64,000 nt of DNA from Siphonodentalium dalli (Eukaryota; Mollusca; Scaphopoda; Gadilida; Siphonodentaliidae). Shown in pieces: positions 25,513-53,840 of the stretch (position 1 is the first letter of the stretch; every line of letters begins with the position of its first letter). The stretch lies in NCBI GenBank assembly GCA_032622095.1, contig CP136063.1, positions 281,535,426 to 281,599,425 of the forward strand. Direction: 5' to 3'. The notes below the pieces were generated by a model that was not told the DNA's origin, did not search any database, and saw only the letters and a list, made by a program, of their open reading frames with translations. The position numbers were made by a program, and so were the translations under genes.

Positions 25513-25577
25513 ACTTGATGGACAGACTACTCAACATAATGACTCATCAGCAAAGAGAAATCAGAGGTGCCATTTAA
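25513..25577 (+). CDS. Candidate last coding exon paired with 18039-18180
   Basis: It follows an acceptor (tttatatttccag). Read in the phase left by the donor at 18180, it gives a helical, leucine-rich 21-residue end (DLMDRLLNIMTHQQREIRGAI) and then TAA. Heptad-like spacing of Leu/Ile and Met suggests a coiled-coil tail. In another frame the same exon stays open for 73 codons to 25732, which is a competing interpretation. Support is limited to splice signals, phase compatibility and protein-like composition. Confidence 0.3.
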
Positions 25578-25739
25578 GTCTCCGGCAATTTGGCGGCAAT
25601 TTCATTTTAGCAAATGATGCTAAGAAATGGTATGTTCACCATGAAACATGGGCTAATCTGAATGATGATCCAAGGGAAAGACGGTTCAAAAAGCTTTTGA
25701 CATTTACAAGGATCCGCAAAGACTTCTACTGATGACCTG

Positions 25740-26596: not shown

Positions 26597-26740
26597 TCCG
26601 AATCTGGGAACGAGACTACCCGCCCCCGAGACAACCCGCCCCTATGCTATTTTGGGGCGGGTTGTCCCGATAAATGAGGGCGGGTTGTCCCGAAATTGTT
26701 TATAGTGATTATGTTCTTTTATGTTCTTTGATGATATATT

Positions 26741-27674: not shown

Positions 27675-27824
27675 GATATATTATTAAAGATTTTGATCAA
27701 CAAAACATGTGTTTATTCATTAATTATGTCAATGCGTGGACTGGGATAAAGAATGATACAATGTTTTGACAACTGAACGACAGTGTGGTATCACAACACT
27801 TAGTGGTCGGGATTCATTTCACTG

Positions 27825-28106
27825 ATGTTAACTGGAGGCGAGTATATACAAACAGCCTTTGAACGATGCCGACGGAACTGGACGCAGGCCGTGAATAGAC
27901 ACACATCAACCGTCGGCCTTAAGACGGCATATGGCCAGAAGGCTCTTCCCTTCCTCCCGGCTCCACAAATAAGAGAAACGTTCCAGGAGTACTATGACAG
28001 AACGTCTGAAGGTTCAAAGATCAGGGAGGTCCTAGACTACATGCAGCGCCAGTGGATCACGAGCTCATCATTCCCCCCAGAGAGTTGGGAGCATATACTC
28101 ATATGA
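27825..28106 (+). pseudogene. MULE transposase C-terminal exon (partial)
   Basis: The 93-codon frame contains, in order, C..NWTQAVNRH, VGLKTAYGQ, ALPFLPAPQIRETF, a helical linker and FPPESWEH. This sequence of motifs is known downstream of the catalytic domain in MULE transposases, where a C-x-H or C helix is followed by 'GL..AY', 'LPFLP...I..F' and an 'FPP..W' segment. The acceptor-like cag at about 27855 would make this a terminal exon. The stop (28104-28106) is followed by AATAAA at 28121-28126, so the 3' end of the gene is intact. The catalytic DDE part is missing, because the hAT insertion and deletion have removed upstream exons or because they lie unrecognised. Confidence 0.65.
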
Positions 28107-28120
28107 CGTTTTTATTTGTA

Positions 28121-28126
28121 AATAAA
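28121..28126 (+). promoter_or_regulatory. Polyadenylation signal of the MULE gene
   Basis: AATAAA 15 bp after the stop codon of the transposase exon, on the same strand and inside the element. Confidence 0.5.
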
Positions 28127-28843
28127 GTTTATTTGTGCATAAATGTCATATTAACAGAGCACCGGGTCCGGTCAACAGGAAACCCTATATAAGACCAGAC
28201 CCAAAAACCAATAGTCAAAATTAGAAAAACACGTGATCATATACAAGGTGAAATAAGGAAAATGAAACAACATAATAATTCAATTGCTCAGCAGAATATG
28301 AGGGCGGCCTCTGGTTGGGATCAAACAATTAATTACCATAGAGATGTACTTAGGGGACGGCAGGGCTATGATATGACATCCGCAACGACATCGAAGCATG
28401 GCATAGACGAATGAATACAATGGGGACCCGCTTAGATTTCTATACCATGGTCCCACTTCTGCAGAAGGAGGCACCAGCCCAAAATTAATCATTGTTCGTT
28501 TGTTAAACTTATTAAATTTTGTTTTTAATCTTCGTTCATTACGTTTTTAAATTTCGTTCATTAATTTCGTTCGTAATAAATAAACATATTATCGTTGATG
28601 TTCATAAGTTATATTATATTACATGTGTATTTATTGTTGTCCATGTTGTTAAATCAAATAAAAATCTATAAAAAAAACAACCCAGTTTCGTTAAACAAAC
28701 ATCTCATAATCCCATCACACCTCCTAATTAGCCACTGATTACCGCTAATTGATTTTTGGGGGCTGGTTGTCCGGGGGCGGGTTGTCACAGAGTGAAAGGG
28801 GGCGGGTTGTCTCGGGGCGGGTAGCCACGGACCCTCCGAATCT

Positions 28844-29155
28844 TCCCGTTCCCATTTATCTTACCATTTTTCGCGTCAAATATACCTTTTCAATTTGAAA
28901 TCTGCCATGACCTCGAGGCAGTATATAGATTGTTCTGGTATTTCAATAATGAAAATGCATTTCTACTCAATCCTCTCAAACTTTTAGTTTTTATAACGCG
29001 ATACTCAACGTGAAAAGAGCGTTTCAACTTGCGTTTTCCACATTTTAATTTAGAAGATACGGTTAATTAAAAATTGAAACAGCTCTTCGCTGAAACGAAA
29101 CTGAGCATTTGGTAAAAAGGCACACGTGGGCTGGCAATAGACATACCGTATATAA
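28844..29155. other. No gene seen
   Basis: About 310 bp of AT-rich sequence with nothing recognisable. Confidence 0.4.
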
Positions 29156-29163
29156 CATAATTG

Positions 29164-30219
29164 AGGGTATCACCCCCTCCCCCCTGAATCCTGAATACGA
29201 GTTAATTTTGGGGGGTGAATCCTGAATACGAGTTAATTTTGGGGGGTGAATCCTGAATACATGTTAAGAAATAATACATAGAAGTTACATAGACACATTA
29301 TGATGCCGGTCGCGTTATGAGGCCGTTATGATACCATTAATGATACTTTATGACCAGGGACGTGGCTAGAGGGTTTCCGTTGGGGGGTGTCCACCTTGGG
29401 AAATTCCAACTGCACCCCCCTCCTTGGGTCAGAATCAGACCGAACACAAGTTTTGCATAATTCCATTTGCACCCCCTCCTTGCACCTCAGTGTTTAGGCC
29501 TAATATCCAACATCTTCATAAACCATGATTCTATATTCCCGGTATGAGAAAATTCAGATATTTTAACCTGAAACATTGCATAAATCCTAACATCTAGTGG
29601 TCTAACTCCATACACATGCACACGGCTACGGGCAAGAGACCACGACACACCGAGCTGAACATCGTTGTTCGGCCGGTGTGAGAATTTTTTTTAATTTGAA
29701 CAAGAAAATCGCAAATCCTAGCATCCAGACTGGCCTCAACTAAAGCTTTCCTATAGTGTTGGAAATTTCAAACATCATACTCCCCTTCAGGTTGGAAAAT
29801 TCTCCAACTGATGACCACAAGTTTGACCAAATGTAGTAAAATATTGTTAAACTTATTAGCATTTTTGTATTGGCCACAGGGGAGAGACAATGACACACCG
29901 GGCCGACCATGGTTCGGCCCGGTGTGCGAAAATTTTGTAATCTGAACAAGAAAATAGCAAAATCCTAGCATCTAGACTGGCGTCAAACATTTTTAGCATG
30001 TTTATGATGGCACGGTGGTCGAATATGCCCAAGAAGCTATTATACCCACCCATTCACACAGATAACCTGCACAAAATATTACTTTGCGCCATCAAAACCT
30101 GCGTCCAAGATGTTTTGCTTGAACCCGAATACCAGTTAATTCGGGGGTATGAATCCCGCGTACGGCTTCAAAACACCCTGAATCCCGCGTACCGAAAGGG
30201 GGGGGGGGGGTGATACCCT
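29164..30219. mobile_element. DNA transposon with 8-bp target duplication CATAATTG
   Basis: Ends AGGGTATCACCCCC and GGGGGTGATACCCT are inverted repeats, flanked by an exact 8-bp duplication CATAATTG (29156-29163, 30220-30227). Next to the left end is a 31-bp sequence (gaatcctgaatacgagttaa) repeated about three times, and next to the right end a diverged counterpart (gaatcccgcgtac). The interior holds a ~255-bp duplication (about 29630-29735 and 29885-29985, both with cacaccg...ttcggcc) and a cagggacgtggctagaggg stretch at 29353 that resembles the end of another transposon. 8-bp duplications suit hAT, though the ends are not the usual CAG/TAG. Confidence 0.75.
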
Positions 30220-30227
30220 CATAATTG

Positions 30228-30885
30228 CACAAACAAGTATACCCAGCTGCTTGGGTGAGGGAGAAGATCACTCGATCACTATCCTGCTTAAATCGTGAAA
30301 TGTTTAACAAGTTCACCGTCTGTTGATGTGTGCATGGTCGGGTTTTGTCTGGAAGTCCTGAATTGACATGCAGTCGTCTTGTCCCAGGTTCATGAAGTAA
30401 ACTGTTGGACGGAGAAGACCAGAACGCGTCAACTTCCGTCATAAAAAACTTATTGAATTGAATTGAAAATGTGAGTGACATCTCAGACTGGTCGAGAGTG
30501 TGAATGGTGTTCAACTTCGATCTCGATCGTCATCAACTGATCTCGTCATAGTTCGTGTACTTCGTCAGAGCGTTCGTCGTGCACACGTGACAGGCGATAA
30601 GTGGTCCACATCCTGGTGATGGGACTCATTCAATTCAATGTATGGGAGGTGCGGTGCTACAATGGGGTTTGTAAACAGTTGGAAATGTCATGCCTGTCAC
30701 AAAAACGTTCGGAACTAAAAGACATAATATATATGACAGATTTGGTGCAGAAAATAAGTCATTTCGACTCAACGTTTGTTCGTGCGTTATAGCTCGGTAA
30801 ACCGGTTACAAATTGGTGCGTCGTATTTTTTTTGGGTCCGTGACTACCGCCCCTGAGACGACCCGCCCGTTTCATGCCGATGTAT
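30228..30885. other. No gene seen; solitary MULE-type end at about 30838-30870
   Basis: gggtccgtgactaccgcccc...gagacgacccgcccg matches the termini of the MULE at 26606-28834 but has no partner nearby. The rest is unremarkable. Confidence 0.45.
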
Positions 30886-31147
30886 CCAGACGATTGGGAC
30901 CTTGGACGATTGGGAGCTTGGACGAATGGGACCTTATGTTGGACGATTGGGACCTTGGACGATTGGGACCTCGGGACGATTGGGACCTTGAGTCAAGACG
31001 ATTGGGACCTTATTCAAGTTATTATATTTATTATATAAACTTTATATTCATAATGCAGACCATTTCCTATTAAATAATTATTACATTTGGTTAGTGTCAA
31101 GTAAGTATTGAACATAATCACAGTGAGTACAGTTTATCAATGTTTAC

Positions 31148-31788
31148 TTAAAGGGGTACTGTACCCCAATTTCAATAAATTCCCGGCGACAATAGCGATC
31201 TAATATCAATATTATATTTTAAAATAACTAATTTGAGTCGACGATGTCTACTGAAAACGTTCCGGTTAACAGGCTATCACAAAAGTAAAATTGAATTATT
31301 TAATATAAATTCATTTATGGCTGGAGTCATAAAATGGAGAATTATGCCAGTACGAGTTACCGTTCTTGAAATCGTATCTGTTACGTGTCTTTTATCGACG
31401 GCCGTTAGCGAACATTATTGAGTTGCAAACATAACATGTTACCTGCAAAAGAAAGGCCCGCTATAACCGATTCGGAAAAAAGAAGAAAGAAACAAGAGTC
31501 ATAAAGCGTCAAGTATTTGTATAGGGGGTGAGATTGTTCGATGGAAGAGATTGGAAGCTGTGATCAATGAACTTCCGGTTCTTCTTGCGACTTGAGTCTT
31601 CTCCGGTGAAGGTCAAAAACATGGCGCGTAGTTTGAAATCGTAATATTTTTGTTTCCAAGATCAATATTTTCTTCGCTAAATTAGGTTTATACGAAACTC
31701 ATATAACACGAACACAATCTAACTTGAAAGTTATTTAATGGGAGTAAATAAAAAAAATTGTCTATCCCTGTGTACAGTACCCCTTTAA
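31148..31788. mobile_element. TTAA MITE family C (641 bp)
   Basis: Perfect 17-bp inverted ends TTAAAGGGGTACTGTAC / GTACAGTACCCCTTTAA, with TTAA as the outermost bases on both sides. TTAA target sites suit piggyBac or Kolobok. No coding capacity is recognised. It lies inside the larger element at 30886-32770. Confidence 0.75.
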
Positions 31789-32035
31789 TGGCAGCCTACT
31801 TAAAGCTGCATGCCAAGAAGATAGGGCTAGATACGAGGCGACTAGAGCGTTATCACCCCCACCAACAAAAGAAGATGCACATCAACGGAAACACGTTACA
31901 TGCTTATGTTCGTTCATATATCATGTATTTTTAATAAATATCAAAGTGGGTTGTAAGAAAGGGCATCGATCCTGCCGGGCAGCTCCCGGGTTTAATCCCA
32001 AACCCCTATTTAAAAAAAATGGTGGCATATCCAAC

Positions 32036-32275
32036 ATGTCTTCCGAAAACGTCGAGTGCATTTTCTGTGGTGTCGAAGTTCGACCTCGACAGGTAGGGTT
32101 GAACTGCAGTGGCTGCAACAGTTCTCGTTGGCAGCATCGTAAGTGTCAGACTGGTGTCGGCAGAGAAGTTTACAGACGAGCGGCGAAAGAGCGTTCAGAT
32201 ATCGACTGTTCATGCTCATCTTGTAATACCAAACAGGAATATATATTTAACCAACATTTTGTAAACAAAACATAA
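32036..32275 (+). pseudogene. PHD-like zinc finger ORF, probable MULE N-terminal exon
   Basis: Starting from the internal Met (MSSENVECIFCG), the 79-residue frame has ordered metal ligands: C-x2-C, C-x2-C, H-x2-C and C-x2-C (ECIFCG, LNCSGCN, WQHRKCQ, CSCSSC), a PHD/C4HC3-like pattern, with VRPRQ and TGVGREVYRRA between. In several invertebrate MULEs a small finger with 'VRPRQ..L.C..C..W.H..C.TG' precedes the transposase domain. The frame can be extended upstream to 31946, but that part looks non-coding. No downstream catalytic exon is seen, so it is a partial gene. The alternative is a host PHD-finger exon captured by the element. Confidence 0.5.
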
Positions 32276-32839
32276 GTATAATAATGTACAAACTTTCAAT
32301 TTACAATTTCGAAACTGAGAATTCAACATTCAAGAGCGTTCATGGATCATGTTAGATAGGCTAAAGAGCGTTTTATTTTCCGTTCTCAATCTGTTAGAGA
32401 CTCAAATCAAAGTCATATGTATTTTATGTATCAGAACAACTAACGACGTGGATGGGTGGCATACCAGCTAAATCAACGGGTAACAAACGACAACCTGCCA
32501 TTGTACCTGCTATTGGCATTACTTTACCAAGAGGCATCGGAGAAAGATGATTAGTGAAGGAAAGCTGAGCCGACGACAGAAATCCATTACACAAATACAA
32601 TTTGATTTTAAACTAATATAGGCCTACTTGTACTATGAAAAAGCAATTACTCAAGGTCCCAATAGTCCTGACTCAATGTCCCAATAGTCCTGGCTCAAGG
32701 TCCCAACGTCCTGACTCAGCTGAGGTCCCAATCGTCCGAGGTCCCAATCGTCCAAGGTCCCAATCGACAAAAATGTATCAACGATAATATATTTATTCGT
32801 GTTTAATGGAGGAAGTTAAAACAAAATTAAAAACGAAGT

Positions 32840-33178
32840 TTAAAGGTACCCAATCCGATCAGACGCTCCTAAATTACTATTTATTTGGCTTGCGGGGGGG
32901 GGGGGGTAAAAATATTTTATTCGAGTCGAGGAATAATAACAATAATAACCACTTGATTTTAGAGTTATCCATTATTACAACCGCAATTTGTCCGTTTTTA
33001 GCACGTGGTAATCGAAAAGATTGGTCCACAAACAATACAAACAGCAAATTTCAAACATCGATATCTAATCACTCTGAGCTTTGATGGGTGGGTTCCTCGA
33101 CTCGAATCAAACATTTTTTACCAGCGAAGCCAAAGAAATAGTAATTTAGGAGCGTCTGATCGGATAGAGTACCTTTAA
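32840..33178. mobile_element. TTAA MITE family B, copy 2 (339 bp)
   Basis: TTAAAGGTACCCAATCCG on the left and CGGATAGAGTACCTTTAA on the right, inverted, with TTAA outermost. The interior folds back (aaattactatttatttggc against gccaaagaaatagtaattt). A G-run is at about 32897-32909. Confidence 0.75.
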
Positions 33179-33274
33179 TTGATTACTGACCTACTAAATA
33201 GAGAACATTTGTAACGAAAATAATTTATAAGTATAGTTCAAAGCAAACGCAAAATATGTCCAGGTATTTACAAT

Positions 33275-33751
33275 TTAAAGGTACTCAACCCGATAAAACT
33301 CCTCTCAATTACTATTTCAATGGCTTCGGGGGTCAAAAATATTTGATTCGAGTCGAGGAAGTCACCCATCAAAGCTCAGATTTGTTAGATATCGATTTTA
33401 GAAATCTATTATTTTTCATTATCGGGAATACTATCTGGCCCAGAACTCAGTAAAAATTGCGTTAAAATTACCACTTGATTTTAGAGTTATTCATCCTTGT
33501 CTGTTTGAATAGATTTGGAGTACACATCCAGAGCAGATTACGGCAGTTATCAGTACTCATCTCGAGAACATAACAAATTTGAAAAATCAATATCTAATAA
33601 CTCTGAGCTTTGTTTGATGGGTTCCTCGACTCGAATCAAATATTTTTTACCCCCAAAGCCAAAGAAATAGTAATATAGGACCCTCTGATCGGATTGTTGT
33701 TGTTGGAATCTGTTGAGATGGGGACCCTCTTTACGGGTTGAGTACCTTTAA
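33275..33751 (+). mobile_element. TTAA MITE family B, copy 3 (477 bp, complete)
   Basis: TTAAAGGTACTCAACCCG / CGGGTTGAGTACCTTTAA are perfect inverted ends with TTAA at both edges. It is the fullest copy of the family. It encodes nothing; the open frame at 33256-33453 recurs as a fragment at 45557 only because the DNA repeats. It sits about 100 bp from copy 2. Confidence 0.8.
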
Positions 33752-41287: not shown

Positions 41288-44200
41288 TACTCTAGTAGCT
41301 GAGGGCGTTTTGTATGCACTTTTATGTCCAGAGCAAAACTCTTCACGAATCCACTAATTGAAGGTACACGAACAATATTTGGTTGGTGACACATTTCCCA
41401 TTGAGGGCGAAATGGGTCAAATGGCCACGCCCCTTTTTGCGCGAAGTACTACCACCTGCCGTGACTATATCTCCAGAACCGTTGGACATAGGGGGTCGTG
41501 TGACCACTCAAATTGTGCAGAATGGCCACATTATGGGGGGTCAGTAATACATTTTCATATCCAAAAGTCAATGGTTTTTAAGATAATTGCCAAAAACCAA
41601 AAAAAATCCATTTTTAAGGGCCCAATTTTGGGGTTCAGCACTTTTATCTCAAAGCTGAGCCCCCAATTCAAATTTTATTGATCTATATCCATCGGTGCCA
41701 CATATAGGTATAATTTCTGTACCATTATTGGATTAGATTGACCTCCAAGGAGCTCTTGACCCTGAAAATAAGGTTTTTGGATGGAATATATTGGTCGTAG
41801 AATGAAAAACAGACATTTTCCCAATAACAAAGATGTTGAGGAAATCATCAATTATACGGTATTTGATCAGTAACCTAAAACTCCTACAAAAAGGTTACCT
41901 GGTGATATAATTTGAATGTAGTTCATCTTTTGTTATCTAGATTTCATGGCCTTTGATGTGAGATGGCTGCCAAAATGGTTATAAATGGAATGACATATAT
42001 CACATTAGCAATATACTTGTAAATGAGTTCAATGTGTTATTTTCTTTAAACTTATGGGAGAACAGGGTGTTTTTATGGTATTCTAATGTTGAATTGAATT
42101 ATACTCAGCCCACAAGTAGGTTTAGTAAATGTTGAGTTACTACAATTTGATCAATCAGTATGATTCAGTAGTCAAGCAGGTTGTGTCTTTATCAGTCCCA
42201 CATCAATTTTGATTGGCTGCATCACCATTTTGTATAAAGGTTCTACAATTTCCCTAACATGTACATTATTCTAGAACAAATAATGGCTAGCCTGGAGTGA
42301 GTTAGAAGAAAAATACAAGCATCAGTTGATATGCAGATATAAATACATACAAATCTACATTCTGCATGTAGCCATGCTATGCAATCCTCCCTCATGTTTC
42401 AACTTATCAAGGAAAAATGATCACATTACCAATGTCTATGATAGTCAGATGTTTTTGTAGATTTTGTAGATTTGTGGATGTTGTAGATTTTGTAGATTTG
42501 TGGATGTTGTAATGCAATATAGATCTCCATTATACTTGCACAAATTTATTTTTCATTTCGTCCCTTTAAATTGACTTTAAAGGTGGTGCGTAACATGTAT
42601 GTATATGTGCCACTCCAAAATGTATGTATATGTGCCACTCCAAAAATGTCAGTAAAAGTACTGTAAACCGTTTGGTTTGATGTTATAGGCACAGGAGATA
42701 TATATATACTTTACATGTCAAATATTGTGAACCCTGCAGGTACGTTTATGTGTGTCAGTCGCCTTATGTGTGTGATGTACATGCAGTAACTACATGTATA
42801 TTCTAGTGAAATTTATGGTCTGCACTCTGCAGTAATTCAAAAACATGCTATGGCCATGCCTACATATACATATGTACACTGATTCAAACACAATGATTGT
42901 CAGGTTATAATCTATGTTTGAGGAAAGTTACTATGTATTTTTCATTTGTGTTGCATTTGTCAATATTAATGGGTCCCAGGAGTCCAGATGTTACTAGTGC
43001 AGAGCCCATTTAATTTTCATGAAACTGGTGGACTTCATGTCTATACTCCTAAATAAACATGACTCTGAGTCTTATCAGACCAAGACGGTATTGTGTAGGT
43101 TTTACTAGAATTATATTTAGAAAAGACTCAACCATTATTTTTCCACTGCCCTTATCACAATATATTCATTTGGCAGTATTCATCCCAAGTTTAGTGGTGA
43201 TGCTAATACATTTGGTATGATATTCAGGTAGAGCAAAGCGATCTGAACGAATCGAGGATAAGCCACAATGTGTAGAAAACATTAAAAAACATGTATATTG
43301 TGAAATATTTTAATAATGGGTGCTGGTTTTTACAAACTGGCCATTATTGAGATGACTATTCCTGTTGTTTACCAAACATCAGCGTACACAATAAAATTTT
43401 GAAGTATATATGTTCTTGAATGTTGCATACAGACACTGACTTTTGCACAAATTGCTCGGGTTAGCCAAACAATGCAAAAATAACCAACTTTAGGTAAAAT
43501 GATGGTACTTGACAGAATTGCTTTGACCTACAAACATATCAATCCAGCAGTACCCATCAGCATAATATAAAATTAGCAGGACCACTTAACCTGAGGTGGT
43601 ATTGAAAATGAAAATATCTTTAAAATGGTAAGTTATGAGGGCTATTAGCTATTATGAAGAATTATGTTAGTGAAATTATAGACCCTCATCTTCTCAGCCC
43701 TCACAATTGGCTACGGCAATCGGCAATGCCGAAGCCATTTGCTGAAGCAAACTGGGCCACGATAAAGGGTTGCCGTAGCAGATTGCCGAAGCCAAACAAT
43801 CTGAATTAAAAGGGCTGTCTTCTCCAACCTGCAAGTGATGCAACTATCATGGCCAATCAAAACTAATGTGGGACTGACAAAGGCTCATTCTACTATTTTG
43901 ATTGAATAGTGATCATTCCATCATTTCCTAAAACTTTTTGTGAGATGAGGTGTCCTTTTGTAAGAATTGATTACTTCTGAAATATATACTGGTATATATG
44001 GTCATCTCCCATCTGATTACAACATGTTTTTACTATGCCCAGGTGCAATACCCATTTTAGGATCGCAACATGTGGCTGCTGCATGAAGCAAACAGCTGGT
44101 CATTCCATTTAGTAAAAGTGTTTAGCATGTTTCATATCTTGGTCACTTAAATCAGATCAGCTGTTAAATGTTGATAACAAATTTTGAAAACCTGTTTTGT

Positions 44201-45025
44201 TCAATCTGTACATTTCTGTTGATTAGAGCACAATTGTTACCTGATTTTTGGTAAAGCACACCAGTTTCCAAGGCATGTTCAGTCATGAAGAGCTCATGTT
44301 GTGTGTCGGGATCAACACATCCTCAGCAGCAATTTCCAGCTAATCCCATTGTGTGTGGTCAATTGTGCTCTTAAGTCGATCAGAGAATTCGGATAGTTCT
44401 TTAAAAAGTGTCATACATATGCTGTGGCCTTGGTGGTATTGTATACTTGTGGTGCGTAACATGCTGAAATCGGTTTTTGGCAATTATCTTAAAAACCATT
44501 GACTTTTGGATATGAAAATGTATTACTGACCCCCCATAATGTGGATTTTCAGGGTCAAGAGCTCCTTGGAGGTCAATCCCATCCGATAATGGTACAGAAA
44601 TTATACCTATATGTGGCACCGATGGATATAGATCAATAAAATTTGAATTGGGGGCTCAGCTTTGAGATAAAAGTGCTGAACCCCAAAATTGGGCCCTTAA
44701 AATGGATTTTTTTTGGTTTTTGGCAATTATCTTAAAAACCATTGACTTTTGGATATGAAAATGTATTACTGACCCCCCATAATGTGGCCATTCCGCACAA
44801 TTTGAGTGGTCACACGACCCCCTTTGGCCAACGGTTCTGGAGATATAGTCACGGCGGGTGGTATTACTTCGCGCAAAAAGGGGCGTGGCCATTTGACCCA
44901 TTTCGCCCTCAATGGGAAATGTGTCACCAACCAAATATTGTTCGTGTACCTTCAATTAGTGGATTCGTGAAGAGTTTTGCTCTGGACATAAAAGTGCATA
45001 CAAAACGCCCTCAGCTACTAGAGTA
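41288..45025. mobile_element. Large foldback element (3.7 kb, 481-bp inverted arms)
   Basis: Left arm 41288-41768 (tactctagtagctgagggcg ... gaccctgaaaat) is matched, inverted, by 44545-45025 with only a few percent mismatches. Mirrored, more diverged segments continue inside (tcagtcccacatcaa near 42198 against its complement near 43862). A piece of the right arm is repeated at 44467-44544. The ORFs in the two arms encode the same peptide on opposite strands and are products of the repeat rather than genes. The 2.7-kb interior is AT-rich with no recognisable coding region. It is flanked on both sides by tctca(t/c)gtgaga-type motifs. Confidence 0.7.
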
Positions 45026-45029
45026 TATG

Positions 45030-45450
45030 AGATCTAACGTGAGAATTTCTGACTTTGAAAATATCCAATAAGTTTTTGTGGAAAAATTTCAAAGTCTGCA
45101 TTTCTCATAAGAAATCACGTGAAAATTTTTTAACTCGGGAATGTTTTTAAAAACTTACTTGAAGGATGATAATTTCAAAGTCTATTTTTCTCATGCGAAC
45201 TCAAATTAGAATTTGCAACTTAGAAAAATATACTACGGTTCAGTGGAAATATTTCTAAGTCTGAATTTCTTACGAGATCTCATATTTCTCACGTGAGAAA
45301 TTTTTCTCACATAACACCTTTGGTTAGAAAATTGATTTCTAACATCTTCTCACAAGGTTCATGTTAGTTTTCTCTGCTTTGCATATCTTTCTAATATGCT
45401 TCTCATGAGATTCTTATAAGATTCTAACAACTTCTCATGAGAAATTTCTG
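45030..45450. repeat. Degenerate TCACGTGAGAA-type repeats
   Basis: aacgtgagaatttct, aatcacgtgaaaattttt, ttctcacgtgagaaa, ttctcatgagaaattt and similar palindromic motifs recur every few dozen bases. This is the right-hand counterpart of the array at 39315-39650. Confidence 0.55.
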
Positions 45451-45581
45451 TATGGGTGTAAACAACAAGTGTTCCCGGTGTTGAAAAGAGCATTTTGGCG
45501 GTGTTTTCTTTTGAAGTTGTCTTTCAGTTTCGGAGCTTTCGTTTACACTGGACAAAATGTCGACAGTCATTCATGTTTATT

Positions 45582-45927
45582 TTAAAGGTACTCAATCCGA
45601 TAAAACTCCTCTCAATTACTATTTCAATGGCGAGGAAGTCACCCATCAAAGCTCAGATTTGTTAGATATCGATTTTAGAAATCTATTATTTTTCATTATC
45701 GGGAATACATTCTGGCCCAGAACTCAGTCAAAATTGCGTTATTATTACCACTTGATTTTAGAGTTATCCATCCTTGTCTGTTTGAATATATTTTGGTGTA
45801 CACATCCCGAGCAGATTACGGCAGTTGAAGGCAATTATTAGTACTCATCTCGAGTAAATACAAAATAACAAATTTCAAAAATTATTAGTACTCAACTCGA
45901 GTAAATTAATAACAAATTTCATAAATG
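45582..45927 (+). mobile_element. TTAA MITE family B, copy 4 (right end truncated)
   Basis: Starts TTAAAGGTACTCAATCCG and follows the family B consensus through ctgggccagaactcag and cagattacggcagtt, then breaks up around a duplicated ttagtactcatctcgagtaaa. The right terminus is not present. An internal deletion removed the gcttcgggggtcaaaaat segment. Confidence 0.65.
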
Positions 45928-45959
45928 ACATAACAAAACGATCTATCAGTTCCCCACAC

Positions 45960-46275
45960 TGCATGAAAACTGGAATTTATTCATTGCATAAATTCCGGAT
46001 AAATGTGCATAAATCTGGATAAATCAGAAATTTATTCACTGAATAAATGTGCATAAATCCGGAAATTTATGCACATTTATTCACAATTTATTCATGAATA
46101 AAGGCCGACATTTATACACAATTTATTTTTCACTGAATAAACCCATGTTTATTCAACAGAATAAACTCGGCATTTATTCGTACGTTTATGCACATTTATT
46201 ATCGACCTGTTTATGCATAAATGCGAAATTTATTCACTGAATAAAGCTGCATAAATATATATAGCTACATTTATT
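45960..46275. repeat. 'gcataaat / atttatgc' palindrome-rich tract
   Basis: Dense alternation of gcataaat, atttattcac, attcatgaat and their complements. A related tract is at 59828-60005. It may be the core of an unknown MITE. Confidence 0.5.
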
Positions 46276-46566
46276 CTGAATTGGAGGCGACTAATTAAAG
46301 TCCTTCTTGTTAGTGCCTACTGGTGGTAGGGTGCGCGGAGAATGAGGATCCGCGCTATCTCTCTCTTTGTTTGCGAGCTGAGGTGCTGTGCTGAGGTTTA
46401 GTGTTCCAGATTTGTGCGTGTGCATTTAGTTCCCCTTTGTAAGTTGTCAACATGGATTACTATAGTGATGGACACGTTGGGTGTGGGGAAGTTGATGTCA
46501 ACGGGTGTGACACTGGTGAGAGAAATGCTCGTGGCCATATTTAATGTGATTGAGTAATGAGGTAAT
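46276..46566. other. No gene seen
   Basis: Spacer before the palindrome. No convincing open frame. Confidence 0.3.
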
Positions 46567-46620
46567 AAATTCAAAAAGGCGAGGATGATCCTCCAGGGAG
46601 GTAATCTCAATCACTTGAAT

Positions 46621-46676
46621 ATCCTAAAAATGGTCTAGCGCTTTCGATACAAGTGTATCTTCGTCAGGACCAGGAT
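46621..46676 (-). ncRNA. Hammerhead-ribozyme-like motif, left arm
   Basis: On the minus strand this 56-bp segment is identical to the right-arm motif at 47586-47641: core CTGACGA, a GATAC/GTATC stem II, GAAA, palindromic GCGC, then TA before GACC, with GGTC/GACC and ATCCT/AGGAT forming stem I. One unpaired A sits between the CTGACGA core and stem II, which is non-canonical. See the right-arm entry for detail. Confidence 0.55.
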
Positions 46677-46711
46677 GGTGTAGATAGATGTGGATTTTGC
46701 CTGTCATTTTA

Positions 46712-46719
46712 TACTCTAG
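46712..46719 (-). promoter_or_regulatory. TATA box of the left arm (outward)
   Basis: TATAAAAT on the minus strand (attttata in the printed strand), in gagTATAAAA context, about 36 bp upstream of the left hammerhead-like motif and mirroring the right-arm TATA box. Confidence 0.5.
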
Positions 46720-47548
46720 GTTGATTGAGCGTGAATTTGATTGGTCAAAGGGTAGATGTCGGGTGTTTATGGACACAGAAGAGGTCTCAGAGTTGAGTGC
46801 GGGTATATTGCGGTATGTGGTGCCTCGCGATTCCCGATAGTCTATGCGGGTAGTTTGTGCGGGTATATTGTTGCTGCCCAGTCACTGTAGTTTAGTGCGG
46901 GTAGTTGTAGCGGGTATGTTGTATACAAAGCTACTAGTATAATAACGTGATGTGTCCATGAATTAAAGCACAAACGGCGTCGGTATATGATTTATAACCC
47001 AGGAAGCCGGATGTGTATTTGCGGGTATGTTGAGAAGAAACGATCCGAACTGGTGCAAAGTTAAACCGCACAAGACATAATGCGGTCAATAATCCCCTTG
47101 TATGCCACCTAGGGATGCAAGATATAAACATAATATCAATACAATTTGATAAATGCGGGTACTACACAACACATACCCGCAGCTGGTACACATTATGATG
47201 AATAAAGCGACATACCCGCACCAGTTCGGATCGTTTCTTCTCAACATACCCGCAAATACACATCCGGCTTCCTGGGTTATAAATCATATACCGACGCCGT
47301 TTGTGCTTTAATTCATGGACACATCACATTATTATACTAGTAGCTTTGTATACAACATACCCGCACTAAACTACAGTGACTGGGCAGCAACAATATACCC
47401 GCACAAACTACCCGCATAGACTATCGTGAATCGCGAGGCACCACATACCCGCAATATACCCGCACTCAACTCTGAGACCTCTTCTGTGTCCATAAACACC
47501 CGACATCTACCCTTTGACCAATCAAATTAACGCTCAATCAACCTAGAG

Positions 47549-47556
47549 TATAAAAG
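47549..47556 (+). promoter_or_regulatory. TATA box of the right arm (outward)
   Basis: TATAAAAG in a gagTATAAAAGG context. Transcription from about 30 bp downstream (near 47580) would begin just upstream of the hammerhead-like motif at 47586, placing the ribozyme at the 5' end of the RNA. Confidence 0.55.
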
Positions 47557-47585
47557 GACAGGCAAAATCCACATCTATCTACACC

Positions 47586-47641
47586 ATCCTGGTCCTGACG
47601 AAGATACACTTGTATCGAAAGCGCTAGACCATTTTTAGGAT
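47586..47641 (+). ncRNA. Hammerhead-ribozyme-like motif, right arm
   Basis: Core elements in order: stem I 5' side ATCCT and GGTC (47586-47594); CTGACGA (47595-47601, matching CUGANGA); an extra A (47602); stem II GATAC-ACTT-GTATC (47603-47616); GAAA (47617-47620); stem III reduced to palindromic GCGC (47621-47624); TA (47625-47626), in which U pairs with the last A of GAAA and A is the cleavage-site H; stem I 3' side GACC and AGGAT (47627-47641). A minimal palindromic stem III is known from hammerheads thought to act as dimers in retroelements. The extra A at the base of stem II is the main doubt. Confidence 0.6.
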
Positions 47642-47695
47642 ATTCAAGTGATTGAGATTACCTCCCTGGAGGATCATCCTCGCCTTTTTGAATTT

Positions 47696-48100
47696 ACATT
47701 TATTCTGGTTATATGCTCCAGTTTATGTACATTTATACCCCATATAAATTATTTGGATTTGAACATATATATCCATATATATTTGTGAAATCTACTTTAT
47801 GGTGACATTTGGCTTGTAACCAGCATATAAGGCGACACGGATGTGTATATCTAACTATACATATACACTGTGCATGTGTCGCCCTGATTCTGGTATCTCC
47901 ATGTGTAGTAATTTGCCAACAAAATGCTGCCCTATTGTTGGTTATACCAGTCACAAATATAATATGAACTACTTGGACATGGCACTTTATGTCATAGTTG
48001 TATCTTGCCGTCATCAATTTTCGTAGTCTCTGCAATAAAGAATAAAAATTAAATAATTAAGTGATCGCATGGGAAATAAGTATAAACGATAAAATATTAA
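47696..48100. other. No gene seen
   Basis: AT-rich spacer between the palindrome and the satellite. Confidence 0.35.
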
Positions 48101-48966
48101 AACTAAAATAAGAATTTTTTGTTCTGCTAAAGAGTGATATCGCCCTTCAAGGAACACAATTTTACGGGATTCAAAATTGTGTAACATCATGGATTTATTG
48201 TACATTGAATTTTTATGCGATATGACAAAGCGTGATATCACCCTTTCATCGCCACAATTTTACTCAATTCAAACTTCAAAACGGGATTACATCATGGACC
48301 TACTGTACAATGGATTTATATGTGATATGGCAAAGGGTAATATTACCCTTCCATTACCATAATTTTACGCGATTATAACTTCAAGACCGGATTACATCAC
48401 GGATATATTGTACAATTTATTTATATGTGAACTGGCAAAGGGTGATATCACCCTTCCATGGTCACTACTTTACGCGATTCTAACTTCAAAACAGGATTAC
48501 ATCACGGATATATTGTACAATGAATTTATATATGAACTGGCAAAGGGTGATATCACCCTTCCATGATCAATATTTTACGCGATTCTAACTTCAAAACGGG
48601 ATTACATCATGAATATATTGTACAATGAATTTATATGTGAACTGGCAAAGGGTGATATCACTCTTCCATGATCACTATTTTACGCGATTCTAACTTCAAA
48701 ACAGGATTACATCACGGTTATATTGTACAATGAATTTATATGTGAACTGGCAAAGGGTGTCGTGATATCACCCTTCCATGATCACTATTTTATGCGATTC
48801 TAACTTCAAAATGGGATTACATCATGAATATATTGTACAATGAATTTATATGTGAACTGGCAAAGGGTGATATCACCCTTCCATGATCACTATGTTACGC
48901 GATTCTAACTTCAAAACGGGATTACATCACAGATATATTTTACAATGAATATATATGTGAAATGGC
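48101..48966. repeat. 105-bp satellite with an 18-bp palindrome per unit, left part
   Basis: About eight units; caaagggtgatatcaccc or variants at about 48127, 48226, 48331, 48436, 48541, 48646, 48751 and 48861, i.e. exactly 105 bp apart except for one 110-bp step caused by a 5-bp insertion. Each unit contains the perfect palindrome AAGGGTGATATCACCCTT in its best form, plus ttttacgcgatt, ggattacatca and atattgtacaatg. The left-most units are the most diverged. The array is split by the copia insertion and resumes at 53668. Confidence 0.9.
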
Positions 48967-49195
48967 TGTTATAGTCAGCAATAGCAACCCTGATAACCTA
49001 AGAGAGATAACTCCACTTACCAGCTACCAATTAGTTGTTATTGTCAGCAGTAGCAAACCTTGTCAATCTAAGAGAGATAACTCCACCCACCAGCTACCTG
49101 ATGACATCACAGGAAGGGAAGCCATTGTGTGATCACCCAAGGTGGATGGACAGAAGTAGAAGCAGGAGACAACAAGTGTAAGTGTCTACTTAACA
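48967..49195 (+). repeat. 5' LTR of the copia element (229 bp)
   Basis: Begins TGTTATAG and ends CTTAACA (TG...CA). It contains an internal, diverged duplication: 48968-49028 and 49037-49098 both run gttat(a/t)gtcagca(a/g)tagcaa...agagagataactccac..accagctacc. There is no clear TATA box or AATAAA. Confidence 0.95.
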
Positions 49196-49196
49196 G

Positions 49197-49209
49197 TGGT
49201 AGCAGAGCT
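49197..49209 (+). promoter_or_regulatory. Primer-binding site for initiator Met tRNA
   Basis: TGGTAGCAGAG, one base after the 5' LTR, is complementary to the CTCTGCTACCA 3' end typical of animal initiator methionine tRNA. This is first-strand priming from the tRNA 3' end, as opposed to the half-tRNA priming of Drosophila copia. Confidence 0.85.
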
Positions 49210-49217
49210 AAAAGAAG

Positions 49218-52200
49218 ATGGCTCAACACAGCTACAAGATTCCACCTAACCTGGACACTCATAGTAGTTATGAGAGTTGGAAAAATGAGCTGAAAATGTG
49301 GAATTTAGTGACTGATGTTCCCCAAAAAAAACAAGCTCTAGCAGTTGCGTTGTCACTTACGGGAAAAGCGAAGGAAATTGCTTTGGAAATCTCTGCAGAC
49401 GACCTTGCTGACGAGGAACAGGGGATGAAGAAACTGTTAAAAAAATTGGATACAGCATTTGAAAAGGACAAAATAGATTGTGCGTATGAAGCATACAGCG
49501 ACTTTGAAAACTTTCGTCGAAATGAGGAAATGACAATGTCACAGTACATCATCGAATTCGAACACAAGTACAACAAATTAAAGTCGTACGATATGACATT
49601 ACCTTCCGCCGTGCAGGCATTCAAGTTGTTGGATAACACTAATTTATCCACCAAAGATCGACAGTTGGCGTTAACGGCATGCACAAATATAACGTTCGAC
49701 TTAATGAAATCGGCACTAAAACGGATCTTCGCCGATTCTCATGGAAATCCAGAAGCATCTAACGGAGAAAAGATTCTACTAAAGAAGGAGCCGGTGGATG
49801 ATGTCTATTTCACAGGAAGACCGTACAGTGGCGGATACAAAAATGTCGGTAGGAAATACGGAAACGGCAGTTCGAACAAAAATCCTCTCGATAAATTTGG
49901 AAACGTTACCAAGTGTGCGATTTGCGGTAGTCTCTACCACTGGGCAAAGAACTGTTCTCAACGACGACAACAGGCTTTCCAGAACAACACAGAGAATAAT
50001 CAGCCGCATTCTGTGAACATTACTCTTTTCAATGGCGATGTTGGAAAGAATGAAATTTTCATGGTGGAGTCATTTGGAGCTGCTGTTATTGACACTGCGT
50101 GTACGAAAACTGTCTGTGGACAAAAATGGCTACACAACTATATCAACGATTTAACAAGCGAAGAACGAAGTTTTGTTAGTCAGTCAAAGAGCTCGCAAGA
50201 ATTTAGATTTGGTGATGGAGTTCAAATTCGGTCGTTGGAAAAAGTGACAATTCCTGCCGTCGTTGGAAAAACACAATGCTGCATAGTGACAGAAGTTGTG
50301 CCGTGCGACATTCCGCTTTTATTGAGCAAACAGTCTTTAAAGAAAGCAGAAGCAGTATTGGACCTCAGTTGTGATAAAGCGAAAATGTTAGGACAAGATG
50401 TTCAACTTGAGTTTACATCAAGCGGCCACTATTGCATAAACATTCACCCACGTTCAACACAAGCAAAAGCCGAGACGAAAATGCCAGAAGTACTTGCGGT
50501 GGACACGGCTAAACTGGATGATAAAATGCTGATACAGTTGCACAACCAATTCGGACATCCCACTGCTGAAAAACTTGATGCGTTGATAGAAAATTCAGGC
50601 CAAAAAGACCCCGATCTGCTAGAGAGGTTGAAGGCGATAGTAAAAAACTGTGGAACGTGTGAAAAATTCAAAAAGCAACCACCTAGACCGGCAGTTGGAT
50701 TGCCACTAGCGTCCTATTTCAATGAAACTGTGGCGATGGACCTGCATCAACTAGGACCGTCCTTGTGGTACCTACATATCATGGACTTGTTTACTAGGTA
50801 CAGTGCTGCAACAGTAATAACAAGCAAACGGTCATCTGTGATCACGAACAGTTTTATTCAGAAATGGATAGCGATACATGGAAGTCCGAAAACAGTTTAT
50901 TTCGACAATGGTGGAGAATTTGAAAACTGGGAAATGAAGGACATGACCGAGAACTTCAACATTGTTATTAAAACAACACCAGCGGAAAGTCCGTGGAGTA
51001 ATGGACTTCTTGAGCGACACAATAAGACTCTGACTGAAATACTCAACAAAGTGAAGAATTCAAATCAAGTGGACATGGAAACTGCTCTCGCATGGGCTGT
51101 GAACTCTAAGAATTCCTTGGCAAATGTACATGGATATAGTGCATTTCAACTAGTGTATGGACAAAACCCAAACTTGCCGTGTGTTATAAGTGATCGACTA
51201 CCTGCGTTGGAAGGAACCACCATGAGCGAGTATGTAGCAAAAAATCTAAATGCGATGCACTCTGCAAGAAAGGCGTTTATAGAATCAGAATCCTCGGAAA
51301 GAATTCGACGGGCCTTAAAGAAGAATACTCGGTCGTACTCTAACTACTCCACTGGAGACAAAGTGTATTATAAACGGGCAAATAATCCAGAGTGGAAAGG
51401 ACCAGGGATTGTAATTGGGCAAGACAGCTCCGTCGTATTTGTAAGACATGGCGGGACATATGTTCGGGTCCACAAGTGCCGCTTGACAAAACTGCCTTCT
51501 TCAGTAACAAATGACACATGTGATGAAGATGTTTCTGAAACTGTTCCCAACAGTACACCAATATCAACACTTCAGGAAGAATCTGATGAAGAATGTTCGA
51601 AGTCTACAGATGATCCTACTAGTGGAGCAATAGGCGCGAGCAGTAAATCCATCACACCAACAATTGGACAGTTATTTTCCTACAACAGTGATGATGATCA
51701 ATATGTTGTGAAAATTCTTTCTCGTGCTGGAAAAGCAACAGGGAAACACAAAGACTGGTATAATGTGGAGTATCGTTCACCAGAAAGACTGTTAGGAACA
51801 AGAAACTCTCTCGATCTGTGTGGTGTTGACATTGTTCCGGTTAACGAGCCATCTACATCTTCAGAGGAAGAGAATAATGTTATGATAGTAAATATGGATA
51901 CGTTTTATGATGTAAAAATGGCCGAACTTCAGAAATGGAAGGAATACGAAGTCTACAACGAAATTCCGAATGAAGGACAAAAATGTGTATCAACTCGTTG
52001 GATATGTACGATGAAGGAAGTGGACGGAAAGACCGTAAGAAAGGCACGCCTGGTAGCCCGTGGGTTCAAAGATATCGAAAAAGATATAATAAATAAAGAC
52101 TCACCGACATGCAATAAAGAGACATTGAAATTATTGCTTGCGATCATGGTACAGAAAGGATGGAATCCAAAATCAATGGACATCAAAGCAGCGTTTCTGC

Positions 52201-53372
52201 AAAGCTCCCAGATCTCCAGGACAATATTTCTTAAACCACCGAAGGAGTCGTCATCATCAGGAGTCTGGCGCCTAAATAAATGTGTTTACGGCTTAGCTGA
52301 TGCATCATTGTGTTGGTATCAACGAGTTAAGGCAGTAATGTTAAAATGTGGAGCAAAGACATCTTCCTTGGATCCAGCTACGTTCTACTGGTGCGATAAA
52401 GAGGACAATCTCATCGGAATATTAGCTACTCATGTCGATGACTTTATTTGGGGAGGTTCTCAAATCTTCGAAAACGACATCATTGGTGCTATTCGAACAC
52501 AACTAAATGTTGGAAGAGAACAATCAGAATCCTTCAAATATATCGGCCTACATTTAGAGGTGGTTAAAGATTGTGTCTCGTTGGATCAAGATAGTTACCT
52601 GAAGTGTCTGCAAGCAATGACTATTTCAAAGGATCGCATAATGAGTAAAGAGGCGTCTTTAACATCTGAAGAAAAGACAATACTTCAATCAAAACTTGGA
52701 CAACTGCTCTGGATAGCAGTTCAAACTCGACCAGACATTATGTATGACACGGCTGTCTTAACCTCGGAGCTGCAAAATCCTTCAGTAAAGCACATTCTGG
52801 CAATCAACAAAATAATAAAGAGAGTGAAGTCGGATAATGTGAAGCTGCTATTCAAGAAGTTTGACAACCCAGAAAACACAAGACTGCTAGTTTATAGTGA
52901 TGCGTCTTTGGGAAACCTGTACGATGGCGGAAGCCAAGGTGGACATCTGATCATGATAACGGACAACGAAACAGTTATACCAATTGCATGGCAATCAAAA
53001 CGTATTCGTCGCATAGTCAGAAGTACCTTAGCTGCTGAAACGCTTGCGCTAGCAGATGGTATTGATGCAGCCATTCACACAGCTCAATTATACTCCGAAA
53101 TAATGACAGGATCTGTAAATCCGAAATTCATCCCTATAGAGTGCGTTACAGACAACCATTCATTATACGATGCGCTAAAGTCTACGAACTATGTTTGCGA
53201 GAAACATTTACGTATGGACATTAACGGAATTCGAGAGCTGATCAGAAGTCGCCAGATAACTGAAGTTAAATGGAGCAAGTCGCAGTATCAGTTAGCTGAC
53301 TGTCTGACCAAGAAAGGAGCATCAGCTCTAGCCCTGCTCGGAGTGCTGGAGAGAGGATCGCTGCTGCAGTAA
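49218..53372 (+). CDS. gag-pol: copia gag-pol polyprotein (1384 aa)
   Basis: Single intact frame starting at the first ATG after the primer site. Gag (about residues 1-250) has a copia-type capsid-like region and a CCHC zinc knuckle CAICGSLYHWAKNC at 233-246 for RNA packaging. Protease: active-site Asp292 in IDTACTKTVCG, i.e. DTA where most retroelement proteases have D(S/T)G. Integrase: zinc-binding H442, H447, C478, C481, then catalytic D508, D563 and E599 with exact D-x35-E spacing; a WKGPG segment follows. Reverse transcriptase: STRWICTMKE near 928, KARLVARGF near 944, and the catalytic box HVDD at 1072-1075 (usually YVDD). RNase H: VYSDAS with D1228, ST(L)AAETLAL, TDNHS, and LADCLTKKG near the end. 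All catalytic Asp/Glu are present. The protein would form virus-like particles, copy the RNA and insert the cDNA. Confidence 0.96.
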   Translation: MAQHSYKIPPNLDTHSSYESWKNELKMWNLVTDVPQKKQALAVALSLTGKAKEIALEISADDLADEEQGMKKLLKKLDTAFEKDKIDCAYEAYSDFENFRRNEEMTMSQYIIEFEHKYNKLKSYDMTLPSAVQAFKLLDNTNLSTKDRQLALTACTNITFDLMKSALKRIFADSHGNPEASNGEKILLKKEPVDDVYFTGRPYSGGYKNVGRKYGNGSSNKNPLDKFGNVTKCAICGSLYHWAKNCSQRRQQAFQNNTENNQPHSVNITLFNGDVGKNEIFMVESFGAAVIDTACTKTVCGQKWLHNYINDLTSEERSFVSQSKSSQEFRFGDGVQIRSLEKVTIPAVVGKTQCCIVTEVVPCDIPLLLSKQSLKKAEAVLDLSCDKAKMLGQDVQLEFTSSGHYCINIHPRSTQAKAETKMPEVLAVDTAKLDDKMLIQLHNQFGHPTAEKLDALIENSGQKDPDLLERLKAIVKNCGTCEKFKKQPPRPAVGLPLASYFNETVAMDLHQLGPSLWYLHIMDLFTRYSAATVITSKRSSVITNSFIQKWIAIHGSPKTVYFDNGGEFENWEMKDMTENFNIVIKTTPAESPWSNGLLERHNKTLTEILNKVKNSNQVDMETALAWAVNSKNSLANVHGYSAFQLVYGQNPNLPCVISDRLPALEGTTMSEYVAKNLNAMHSARKAFIESESSERIRRALKKNTRSYSNYSTGDKVYYKRANNPEWKGPGIVIGQDSSVVFVRHGGTYVRVHKCRLTKLPSSVTNDTCDEDVSETVPNSTPISTLQEESDEECSKSTDDPTSGAIGASSKSITPTIGQLFSYNSDDDQYVVKILSRAGKATGKHKDWYNVEYRSPERLLGTRNSLDLCGVDIVPVNEPSTSSEEENNVMIVNMDTFYDVKMAELQKWKEYEVYNEIPNEGQKCVSTRWICTMKEVDGKTVRKARLVARGFKDIEKDIINKDSPTCNKETLKLLLAIMVQKGWNPKSMDIKAAFLQSSQISRTIFLKPPKESSSSGVWRLNKCVYGLADASLCWYQRVKAVMLKCGAKTSSLDPATFYWCDKEDNLIGILATHVDDFIWGGSQIFENDIIGAIRTQLNVGREQSESFKYIGLHLEVVKDCVSLDQDSYLKCLQAMTISKDRIMSKEASLTSEEKTILQSKLGQLLWIAVQTRPDIMYDTAVLTSELQNPSVKHILAINKIIKRVKSDNVKLLFKKFDNPENTRLLVYSDASLGNLYDGGSQGGHLIMITDNETVIPIAWQSKRIRRIVRSTLAAETLALADGIDAAIHTAQLYSEIMTGSVNPKFIPIECVTDNHSLYDALKSTNYVCEKHLRMDINGIRELIRSRQITEVKWSKSQYQLADCLTKKGASALALLGVLERGSLLQ

Positions 53373-53426
53373 GACAATGACGGAGATGTAAATACATGTA
53401 CATAAAGTTGTAAATAGAACTTCTAG

Positions 53427-53438
53427 AAAGAGGGGAGT
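53427..53438 (+). promoter_or_regulatory. Polypurine tract
   Basis: gaaagaggggag immediately before the 3' LTR (53439), the usual primer site for plus-strand cDNA synthesis. Confidence 0.8.
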
Positions 53439-53667
53439 TGTTATAGTCAGCAATAGCAACCCTGATAACCTAAGAGAGATAACTCCACTTACCAGCTACC
53501 AATTAGTTGTTATTGTCAGCAGTAGCAAACCTTGTCAATCTAAGAGAGATAACTCCACCCACCAGCTACCTGATGACATCACAGGAAGGGAAGCCATTGT
53601 GTGATCACCCAAGGTGGATGGACAGAAGTAGAAGCAGGAGACAACAAGTGTAAGTGTCTACTTAACA
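53439..53667 (+). repeat. 3' LTR of the copia element (229 bp)
   Basis: Appears identical to the 5' LTR base for base, including the internal duplication. It ends CTTAACA and is followed by ctggcaaaggg of the satellite. Confidence 0.95.
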
Positions 53668-53840
53668 CTGGCAAAGGGTGATATCACCCTTCCATGATCA
53701 CTATTTTACGCGATTAAAACTTCAAAACGCGATTACATCATGGATATATTGTACAATGGATGTATATGTGATGCTAGCAAAGGATGATATCACCCTAACA
53801 TGACCACAATTGCAATTTTACGCGATTAAACTGATGCGAA
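53668..53840. repeat. 105-bp satellite, right part (about 1.6 units)
   Basis: Continuation of the array cut by copia: ctggcaaagggtgatatcac at 53668 and caaaggatgatatcacccta near 53778, with ttttacgcgatt and ggatatattgtacaatgga between them. The last unit is diverged. Confidence 0.85.

What the first reader, a model, noticed from the sequence alone, without database searches (positions are those of the whole stretch)
46567..47695. Palindromic element with two outward TATA-hammerhead modules
Two ~480-bp arms are near-perfect reverse complements around a 162-bp spacer, and each arm carries, facing outward, a TATA box and then a 56-bp hammerhead-like sequence that is identical in both arms. Hammerheads are established in Penelope-like elements and retrozymes, but there they lie in direct repeats around an interior. 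A palindrome with mirrored, divergent ribozyme modules and no ORF is an arrangement I do not know to be described. Either it is a new non-autonomous family, or two Penelope-type terminal repeats fused head to head. If transcribed both ways, each RNA would start with the ribozyme.
Basis: partly seen in the sequence, partly recalled or inferred. Interest (0 to 1): 0.85.

Follow-up and report, generated by a model that had tools for sequence, protein, structure and literature searches.

The report
Head-to-head pair of Penelope-type repeats
A 1.1-kb DNA palindrome in an unidentified, eukaryote-like genome looks like two copies of the end repeat of a Penelope-type jumping gene, each with a possible promoter and a tiny self-cutting RNA motif, joined back to back; that kind of arrangement is already known for such jumping genes, so it is mainly a clean example of how they may insert.

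Summary
Window 46566-47696 is a near-perfect palindrome: arms of 491 and 479 bp around a 161-bp spacer, differing by 4 substitutions and two indels. Each arm carries, facing outward, a TATA-like box and the same 56-nt minimal type I hammerhead. A descriptor, written after seeing the case, finds only these two in the window and none in 12.8 Mb of simulated sequence. Rfam does not match it; its stem III (AGCGCU) has no loop and can form only between two RNAs.

The novelty claim does not hold. Minimal type I hammerheads are reported in Penelope-like elements (PLEs), and head-to-head inverted pseudo-LTRs with TATA and 'tail' are described as typical there (PMC3846280). The best reading is two PLE pseudo-LTRs joined head to head. 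Both arms start at the same base beside AATT, as two-ended target-primed reverse transcription would leave; a purified PLE protein cuts and extends both DNA strands (PMC11167929).

No PLE gene was recognised nearby, the host genome is not held, and copies could not be sought in it. PLE membership is inferred from anatomy. A palindromic ribozyme foldback family is not excluded, but is unlikely.

The parts
46566..47056 (-). left arm, 491 bp: inverted pseudo-LTR-like repeat with tail, reading outward to the left
   Evidence: 96.3% identical to the right arm including indels; ends sharply at the outer side
47218..47696 (+). right arm, 479 bp: pseudo-LTR-like repeat with tail, reading outward to the right
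47057..47217 (.). 161-bp spacer; TACCCGC sites at 47155 (minus), 47174 (plus) and 47213 (plus, straddling the arm boundary), none in its left part, so probably the longer end of the right-hand cDNA (inferred)
47549..47556 (+). TATA-like box TATAAAAG, right arm; initiator-motif matches start at 47569 and 47579, likely start of RNA near 47581 (inferred)
   Evidence: pattern common in the window
46706..46713 (-). TATA-like box TATAAAAT, left arm; initiator-motif matches at 46693 and 46683
   Evidence: found with a widened pattern
47586..47641 (+). minimal type I hammerhead: stem I AUCCU/AGGAU and GGUC/GACC with a 6-nt bulge, core CUGACGA plus an extra A, stem II GAUAC-ACUU-GUAUC, GAAA, self-complementary stem III AGCGCU, proposed cut 47626/47627
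   Evidence: no Rfam match
46621..46676 (-). identical minimal hammerhead in the left arm, proposed cut 46636/46635
47642..47690 (+). tail of the right arm, with a predicted stem-loop; its end is read as the reverse-transcription start site
   Evidence: fold -8.4 kcal/mol, no shuffle control; role inferred by analogy with PMC11167929
46572..46620 (-). tail of the left arm, same sequence
46568..46571 (.). AATT abutting the left end; possible 4-bp target-site copy or priming end
   Evidence: not significant when ends may slide
47691..47694 (.). AATT abutting the right end; possible 4-bp target-site copy or priming end
   Evidence: not significant when ends may slide

Best explanation
This is the insertion footprint of a Penelope-like retroelement reduced to two head-to-head pseudo-LTRs, with no coding region. 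Each arm is one pseudo-LTR: promoter, TATA box, minimal hammerhead near the start of the RNA, then a short tail where reverse transcription begins. The proposed history is as follows. The element's enzyme cut both strands of an AT-rich target at AATT. Each freed 3' end primed reverse transcription at the same place in the RNA tail, giving two cDNAs pointing at each other. Their far ends were then joined, the right-hand cDNA being about 160 nt longer, which leaves the spacer. The hammerhead needs a partner for stem III. In tandem copies the two ribozymes lie on one RNA and can pair; here they lie on opposite strands, so any dimeric cleavage would need two separate RNAs. The copy is therefore probably a dead end that might still start short transcripts into its flanks. 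Shown here: palindrome, sharp coterminous outer ends, TATA-like and hammerhead modules. Inferred: PLE identity, two-ended priming (the least secure step), transcription, ribozyme activity.
For: The hammerhead has the minimal type I form without a self-contained helix III, as reviews report for PLEs, possibly acting as dimers (PMC7761336, passages; PMC6155905, passages). The modelled hammerhead dimer scores -30.5 kcal/mol against 2 x -13.9 for monomers. TATA and initiator motifs followed by an outer tail match the pseudo-LTR layout in PMC3846280, where head-to-head inverted pseudo-LTRs are typical and non-coding sequence is captured between solo pseudo-LTRs. Both arms begin at the same base, and both putative primer strands end in TAAATT-3'. 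The anole element PAc cuts 5'-ATT-3' most often on each strand, extends both, and shows no difference in start site between them (PMC11167929). Distance from ribozyme cut to arm end is 64 nt here; from that paper's figures I reckon about 85-92 nt in PAc, and perhaps 30-40 nt less for a start without the tail. TACCCGC sites (15 of the window's 17 lie in the element) continue from the right arm into the right part of the spacer only.
Against: No PLE reverse transcriptase or GIY-YIG gene was recognised. Of five long frames of the window scanned with Pfam only the copia-type one matched a polymerase. All 20 other frames of 60 codons or more overlapping 43500-49300 gave nothing above a Pfam cut-off (17 of 20 no match, 3 weak unrelated matches below the cut-off). 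There is no second copy in the window. The 4-bp AATT copy is no proof: a direct repeat of at least 4 bp was found in 278 of 300 random pairs of places when ends may slide by 15 bases. The TATA and initiator patterns are common in the window. There is no ATG between 47557 and 47690 of the right arm, unlike PAc, whose reading frame starts at stem II. An unconstrained dimer with other pairing scores slightly better (-33.7) than the hammerhead dimer. The authors of PMC3846280 favour self-priming on an antisense template for head-to-head structures, which would give the same anatomy.
Confidence: 0.68

Rival explanations
1. Same PLE origin, but the palindrome arose by self-priming: one cDNA (or an antisense template) folded back on itself and copied its own arm, the 161-bp spacer being the loop.
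For: This is the mechanism proposed by the authors of PMC3846280 for head-to-head Penelope repeats with palindromes at the junction. It explains equal outer ends and near-identical arms.
Against: The match stops at once at the inner ends, left CTTT against right ACCC next to the shared GCACCAG, so no priming match beyond the arm itself is visible; a match inside the arm cannot be excluded. The left outer end must still be joined to the target by a separate step.
Confidence: 0.15
2. A DNA transposon of the foldback or MITE kind with about 480-bp terminal inverted repeats (possible TA or AATT duplication), whose repeats happen to carry or have acquired a PLE-type hammerhead.
For: Coterminous inverted ends, TACCCGC repeats (15 sites within the element), no long reading frame; ends TA|AATTCAAAAAGG are compatible with a TA duplication.
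Against: Minimal hammerhead with TATA-like box and tail are retroelement features; no transposase recognised nearby; the duplication is not distinguishable from chance.
Confidence: 0.1
3. Two independent insertions of the same full-length solo repeat in opposite orientation, 161 bp apart.
For: Opposite-oriented repeat pairs of similar length occur elsewhere in the window (41288-41769 with 44545-45025, 98%; 21439-21898 with 33275-33734, 96%).
Against: Those pairs lie 2.8 and 11 kb apart; here both inner ends fall at the same base of the repeat and the right arm's TACCCGC motif continues into the spacer.
Confidence: 0.05
4. Assembly or library artefact that duplicated one arm in inverted orientation.
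For: Palindromes are classical artefacts (general knowledge); no reads were available.
Against: Four substitutions, a 13-bp and a 1-bp indel separate the arms, and the two flanks diverge at once outside the same base.
Confidence: 0.02

Closest known systems
Penelope (EN+) elements of Adineta vaga with inverted pseudo-LTRs (Pen2a_Av, Pen3a_Av; PMC3846280)
   Same: head-to-head inverted repeats, TATA with initiator, tail at the outer end, non-coding or foreign sequence between repeats in some cases, AT-rich targets
   Different: the repeats named in section 6 are 181-218 bp and mostly accompany a reading frame; duplications of 8, 9 and 10 bp are given for three inserts and none for others; hammerheads are not mentioned in what I read
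PAc, Poseidon clade PLE of Anolis carolinensis (PMC11167929)
   Same: hammerhead at the repeat/reading-frame junction, insertion end a few tens of nt downstream, both target strands cut at ATT and extended with no difference in start site
   Different: tandem copies with reading frame; reading frame starts at stem II; the ribozyme needed the protein in vitro and its mutants still inserted
Non-LTR animal retrozymes (PMC7229834, outline and passages)
   Same: type I hammerhead, non-coding
   Different: direct tandem repeats expressed as RNAs of about 170-400 nt, canonical helix III in invertebrates or a short one with tetraloop in axolotl, not a palindrome

Membership tests
Penelope-like element (pseudo-LTR pair) | RT related to telomerase with or without GIY-YIG endonuclease | tested here: not met
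   not encoded at this locus: the element has no frame above 85 codons, and 21 of 21 frames of 60 codons or more overlapping 43500-49300 were scanned with no such domain. Solo pseudo-LTR inserts lack it by nature, so this counts against an intact PLE, not against a pseudo-LTR remnant.
Penelope-like element (pseudo-LTR pair) | minimal type I hammerhead lacking a self-contained helix III | tested here: met
   by sequence and fold only, with an extra A after CUGACGA as a deviation
Penelope-like element (pseudo-LTR pair) | pseudo-LTRs in direct and/or inverted (head-to-head) arrangement | tested here: met
   inverted only
Penelope-like element (pseudo-LTR pair) | TATA/initiator promoter in the repeat and an outer tail | tested here: inconclusive
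   motifs present at fitting spacing but common in the window; the tail is identified by position only
Penelope-like element (pseudo-LTR pair) | AT-rich target, short or absent duplication | tested here: inconclusive
   AATT abuts both ends; control 278 of 300
Penelope-like element (pseudo-LTR pair) | sequence match to a PLE family of the same genome | not testable with these tools
   no host genome held
Animal retrozyme | direct tandem repeats carrying the hammerhead | tested here: not met
   no direct copy of the module in the window
Foldback/MITE DNA transposon | multiple copies with constant ends and target duplication, transposase partner | not testable with these tools
   no host genome; single copy in the window

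The most novel reading that the evidence does not exclude
A mobile palindromic family in its own right, whose two mirrored promoters each make an RNA that begins with half of a dimeric hammerhead, so that the ribozyme works only when the two divergent, sequence-identical transcripts meet in trans.
Probability: 0.07. Interest if true: 0.8.

Novelty: new member of a known kind. Interest (0 to 1): 0.33.

Why it matters
How Penelope-like elements make inverted repeats was left open in the papers read: self-priming was proposed in 2013 (PMC3846280), and two-strand cutting and extension was shown in vitro in 2024 (PMC11167929). A clean insertion with nothing but two coterminous head-to-head repeats at an AATT site is a simple case in which the two models can be compared. 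It also separates a cis-dimer role of the hammerhead from insertion, because on a palindrome the two ribozymes cannot both lie in active form on one RNA.

Tried and rejected
Rfam for the whole window and, permissively, for the element: no hammerhead match. I do not count this against the motif, whose minimal form lacks helix III; a dedicated model was not built, as there is only one distinct sequence. Host-genome copy number: not possible. Patterns of the hammerhead, tail and inner arm in IMG/VR and of the hammerhead in GTDB genomes: 6 stretches, 0 in the other four; the six were put down to chance by eye (three of them look like one and the same gene), no calculation was made. Retrozyme rejected: no direct repeats of the module. 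LTR of a copia/gypsy element rejected: the outer ends are CAAAAAGG...CCTTTTTG, not TG...CA, and BLAST shows no long match of the arms elsewhere in the window, only chance-like ones of at most 24 bp. Sharing between left and right flank: only short matches of at most 27 bp. Target duplication: not demonstrated. Pfam scans of the 20 other frames near the element: no PLE domain. Papers: PMC3846280 sections 6, 9, 11 and passages; PMC11167929 section 3 and passages; PMC7229834 outline and passages; PMC7761336 and PMC6155905 passages; all others only in search listings. The primary PLE-hammerhead papers (Cervera and De la Pena 2014; Lunse et al. 2017; Arkhipova et al. 2017) are not held and were not read. 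That an extra nucleotide occurs in a viroid hammerhead core was seen only as a reference title. That the window is from a eukaryote is inferred from its copia-type element, repeats and lack of dense genes; the organism was not identified.

Full report
What is there. The palindrome is real and runs from 46566 to 47696, one base further out on each side than reported. The arms are 491 and 479 bp, the spacer 161 bp. They differ by four substitutions, a 13-bp indel and a 1-bp indel; 96.34% of 492 aligned columns are identical in BLAST. The 13-bp indel lies between two TACCCGC copies, which suggests slippage. Outside TAAATTC / GAATTTA the flanks diverge at once. The arms have no other copy in the window.

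The modules. On the plus strand the right arm has TATAAAAG at 47549, initiator-motif matches starting at 47569 and 47579, and then a 56-nt sequence at 47586-47641 that reads as a type I hammerhead: stem I in two pieces with a 6-nt bulge, CUGACGA, an extra A, a 5-bp stem II with a 4-nt loop, GAAA, AGCGCU, and the cut site UA|GACC. The left arm has the same on the minus strand, with TATAAAAT; the outer 140 bp of the arms are identical. The promoter motifs alone are weak evidence: the strict TATA pattern occurs 111 times in the window on both strands, and the initiator pattern is common. AGCGCU has no loop, so stem III can form only between two RNAs; that dimer scores -30.5 kcal/mol, two monomers 2 x -13.9. 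An unconstrained dimer with other pairing is slightly better, -33.7, so the calculation shows that the dimer is possible, not that it is preferred. A descriptor that allows 0-1 inserted bases, stem II of 4-8 bp, stem I of 4 bp and a stem III of at least two pairs finds only these two in the window (both strands) and 0 in 12.8 Mb of first-order Markov sequence; it was written after seeing the case. The 65-nt fold beats 195 of 200 shuffles, whereas the 141-nt piece 47550-47690 is unremarkable, 22 of 200 shuffles folding at least as well. Rfam does not recognise the motif.

What it most likely is. A 2017 review states that all available PLE sequences show hammerhead motifs, usually minimal versions lacking helix III (PMC6155905, passages); a 2020 review places minimal ones in PLE pseudo-LTRs and says they may cleave as dimers (PMC7761336, passages). 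PMC3846280 (sections 6, 9, 11 read) describes the typical Penelope insert as having an inverted pseudo-LTR adjoining the direct one, with TATA and initiator, an optional tail, duplications of 8, 9 and 10 bp in three inserts and none in others, and non-coding sequence captured between solo pseudo-LTRs; it calls head-to-head the most frequently observed inverted arrangement. The element here has this anatomy without a reading frame and without a demonstrable duplication. I therefore read it as two PLE pseudo-LTRs joined head to head. That is an inference: no PLE domain was found in 21 of 21 frames of 60 codons or more overlapping 43500-49300, and no host genome is held.

How it probably arose. 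PMC11167929 (section 3 read) shows that the anole PLE protein cuts both target strands, most often at ATT, extends both, and starts reverse transcription inside the RNA with no difference between the strands; the ends of genomic copies fall on those start sites. Two such cDNAs meeting head to head would give two arms with the same outer base, each next to ...ATT-3'. Here both putative primer strands end in TAAATT-3'. The distance from ribozyme cut to arm end, 64 nt, is of the order expected from that paper (about 85-92 nt, perhaps 30-40 nt less for a start without the tail; my arithmetic from its text). TACCCGC sites, 15 of the window's 17 being in the element, run on from the right arm into the right part of the spacer and not into its left part, which suggests that the right-hand cDNA was the longer one. 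Self-priming, the mechanism favoured in PMC3846280, is the main rival and is not excluded.

What it does now. Transcripts started at the two TATA boxes would contain only about 110 nt of each arm before running into the flank, so the palindrome could hardly copy itself by its own promoters (inference). A transcript through the whole unit would hold one hammerhead and one antisense hammerhead and would fold into a long hairpin; the two ribozymes could pair only from separate RNAs. In PAc the ribozyme needed the protein in vitro and its mutants still inserted, so activity cannot be assumed and may not matter for insertion.

Against. AATT abutting both ends is a 1 in 256 match at fixed ends, but a repeat of at least 4 bp appears in 278 of 300 random comparisons when ends may slide. 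Inverted pairs of other repeats occur in the window too, though far apart. The extra A in the core is a deviation from the consensus that I know. Pattern scans of viral contigs and of one prokaryote collection gave no relative, which is uninformative for a eukaryote-like sequence.

Verdict. A new member of a known kind, of moderate interest as a simple test case for how Penelope-like elements make inverted repeats.

Noticed in passing
48967-53671: Copia-type element with a 1386-codon frame (49212-53372; RVT_2, and rve just below its cut-off) between 233-bp direct repeats 99.6% identical, inserted into a 105-bp satellite array (48184-48966, resuming at about 53667); presumably young.
   Followed up: partly
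41288-45025: Inverted pair of about 482 bp, 98% identical, 2.8 kb apart; no hammerhead descriptor hit in it.
   Followed up: partly
21439-33734: Inverted pair of 460 bp, 96% identical, 11 kb apart, with a diverged related stretch at 45575-45882.
   Followed up: no
1533-4704: Inverted pair of about 600 bp that includes 122-bp tandem repeats, 89% identical.
   Followed up: no
47594-47692: One frame across the hammerhead and tail is open except for a single TAG; could be a relic of first codons that PLE pseudo-LTRs are reported to carry, or chance.
   Followed up: no
46000-46290: AT-rich array of ATAAATGTGCATAAAT-like units just left of the element; short matches also in its right flank.
   Followed up: no
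46546-46614: The left flank holds GTGATTGAG (46546), a 9-mer found in the window otherwise only in the two tails (47648 plus, 46606 minus); chance or a trace of an older insertion.
   Followed up: partly
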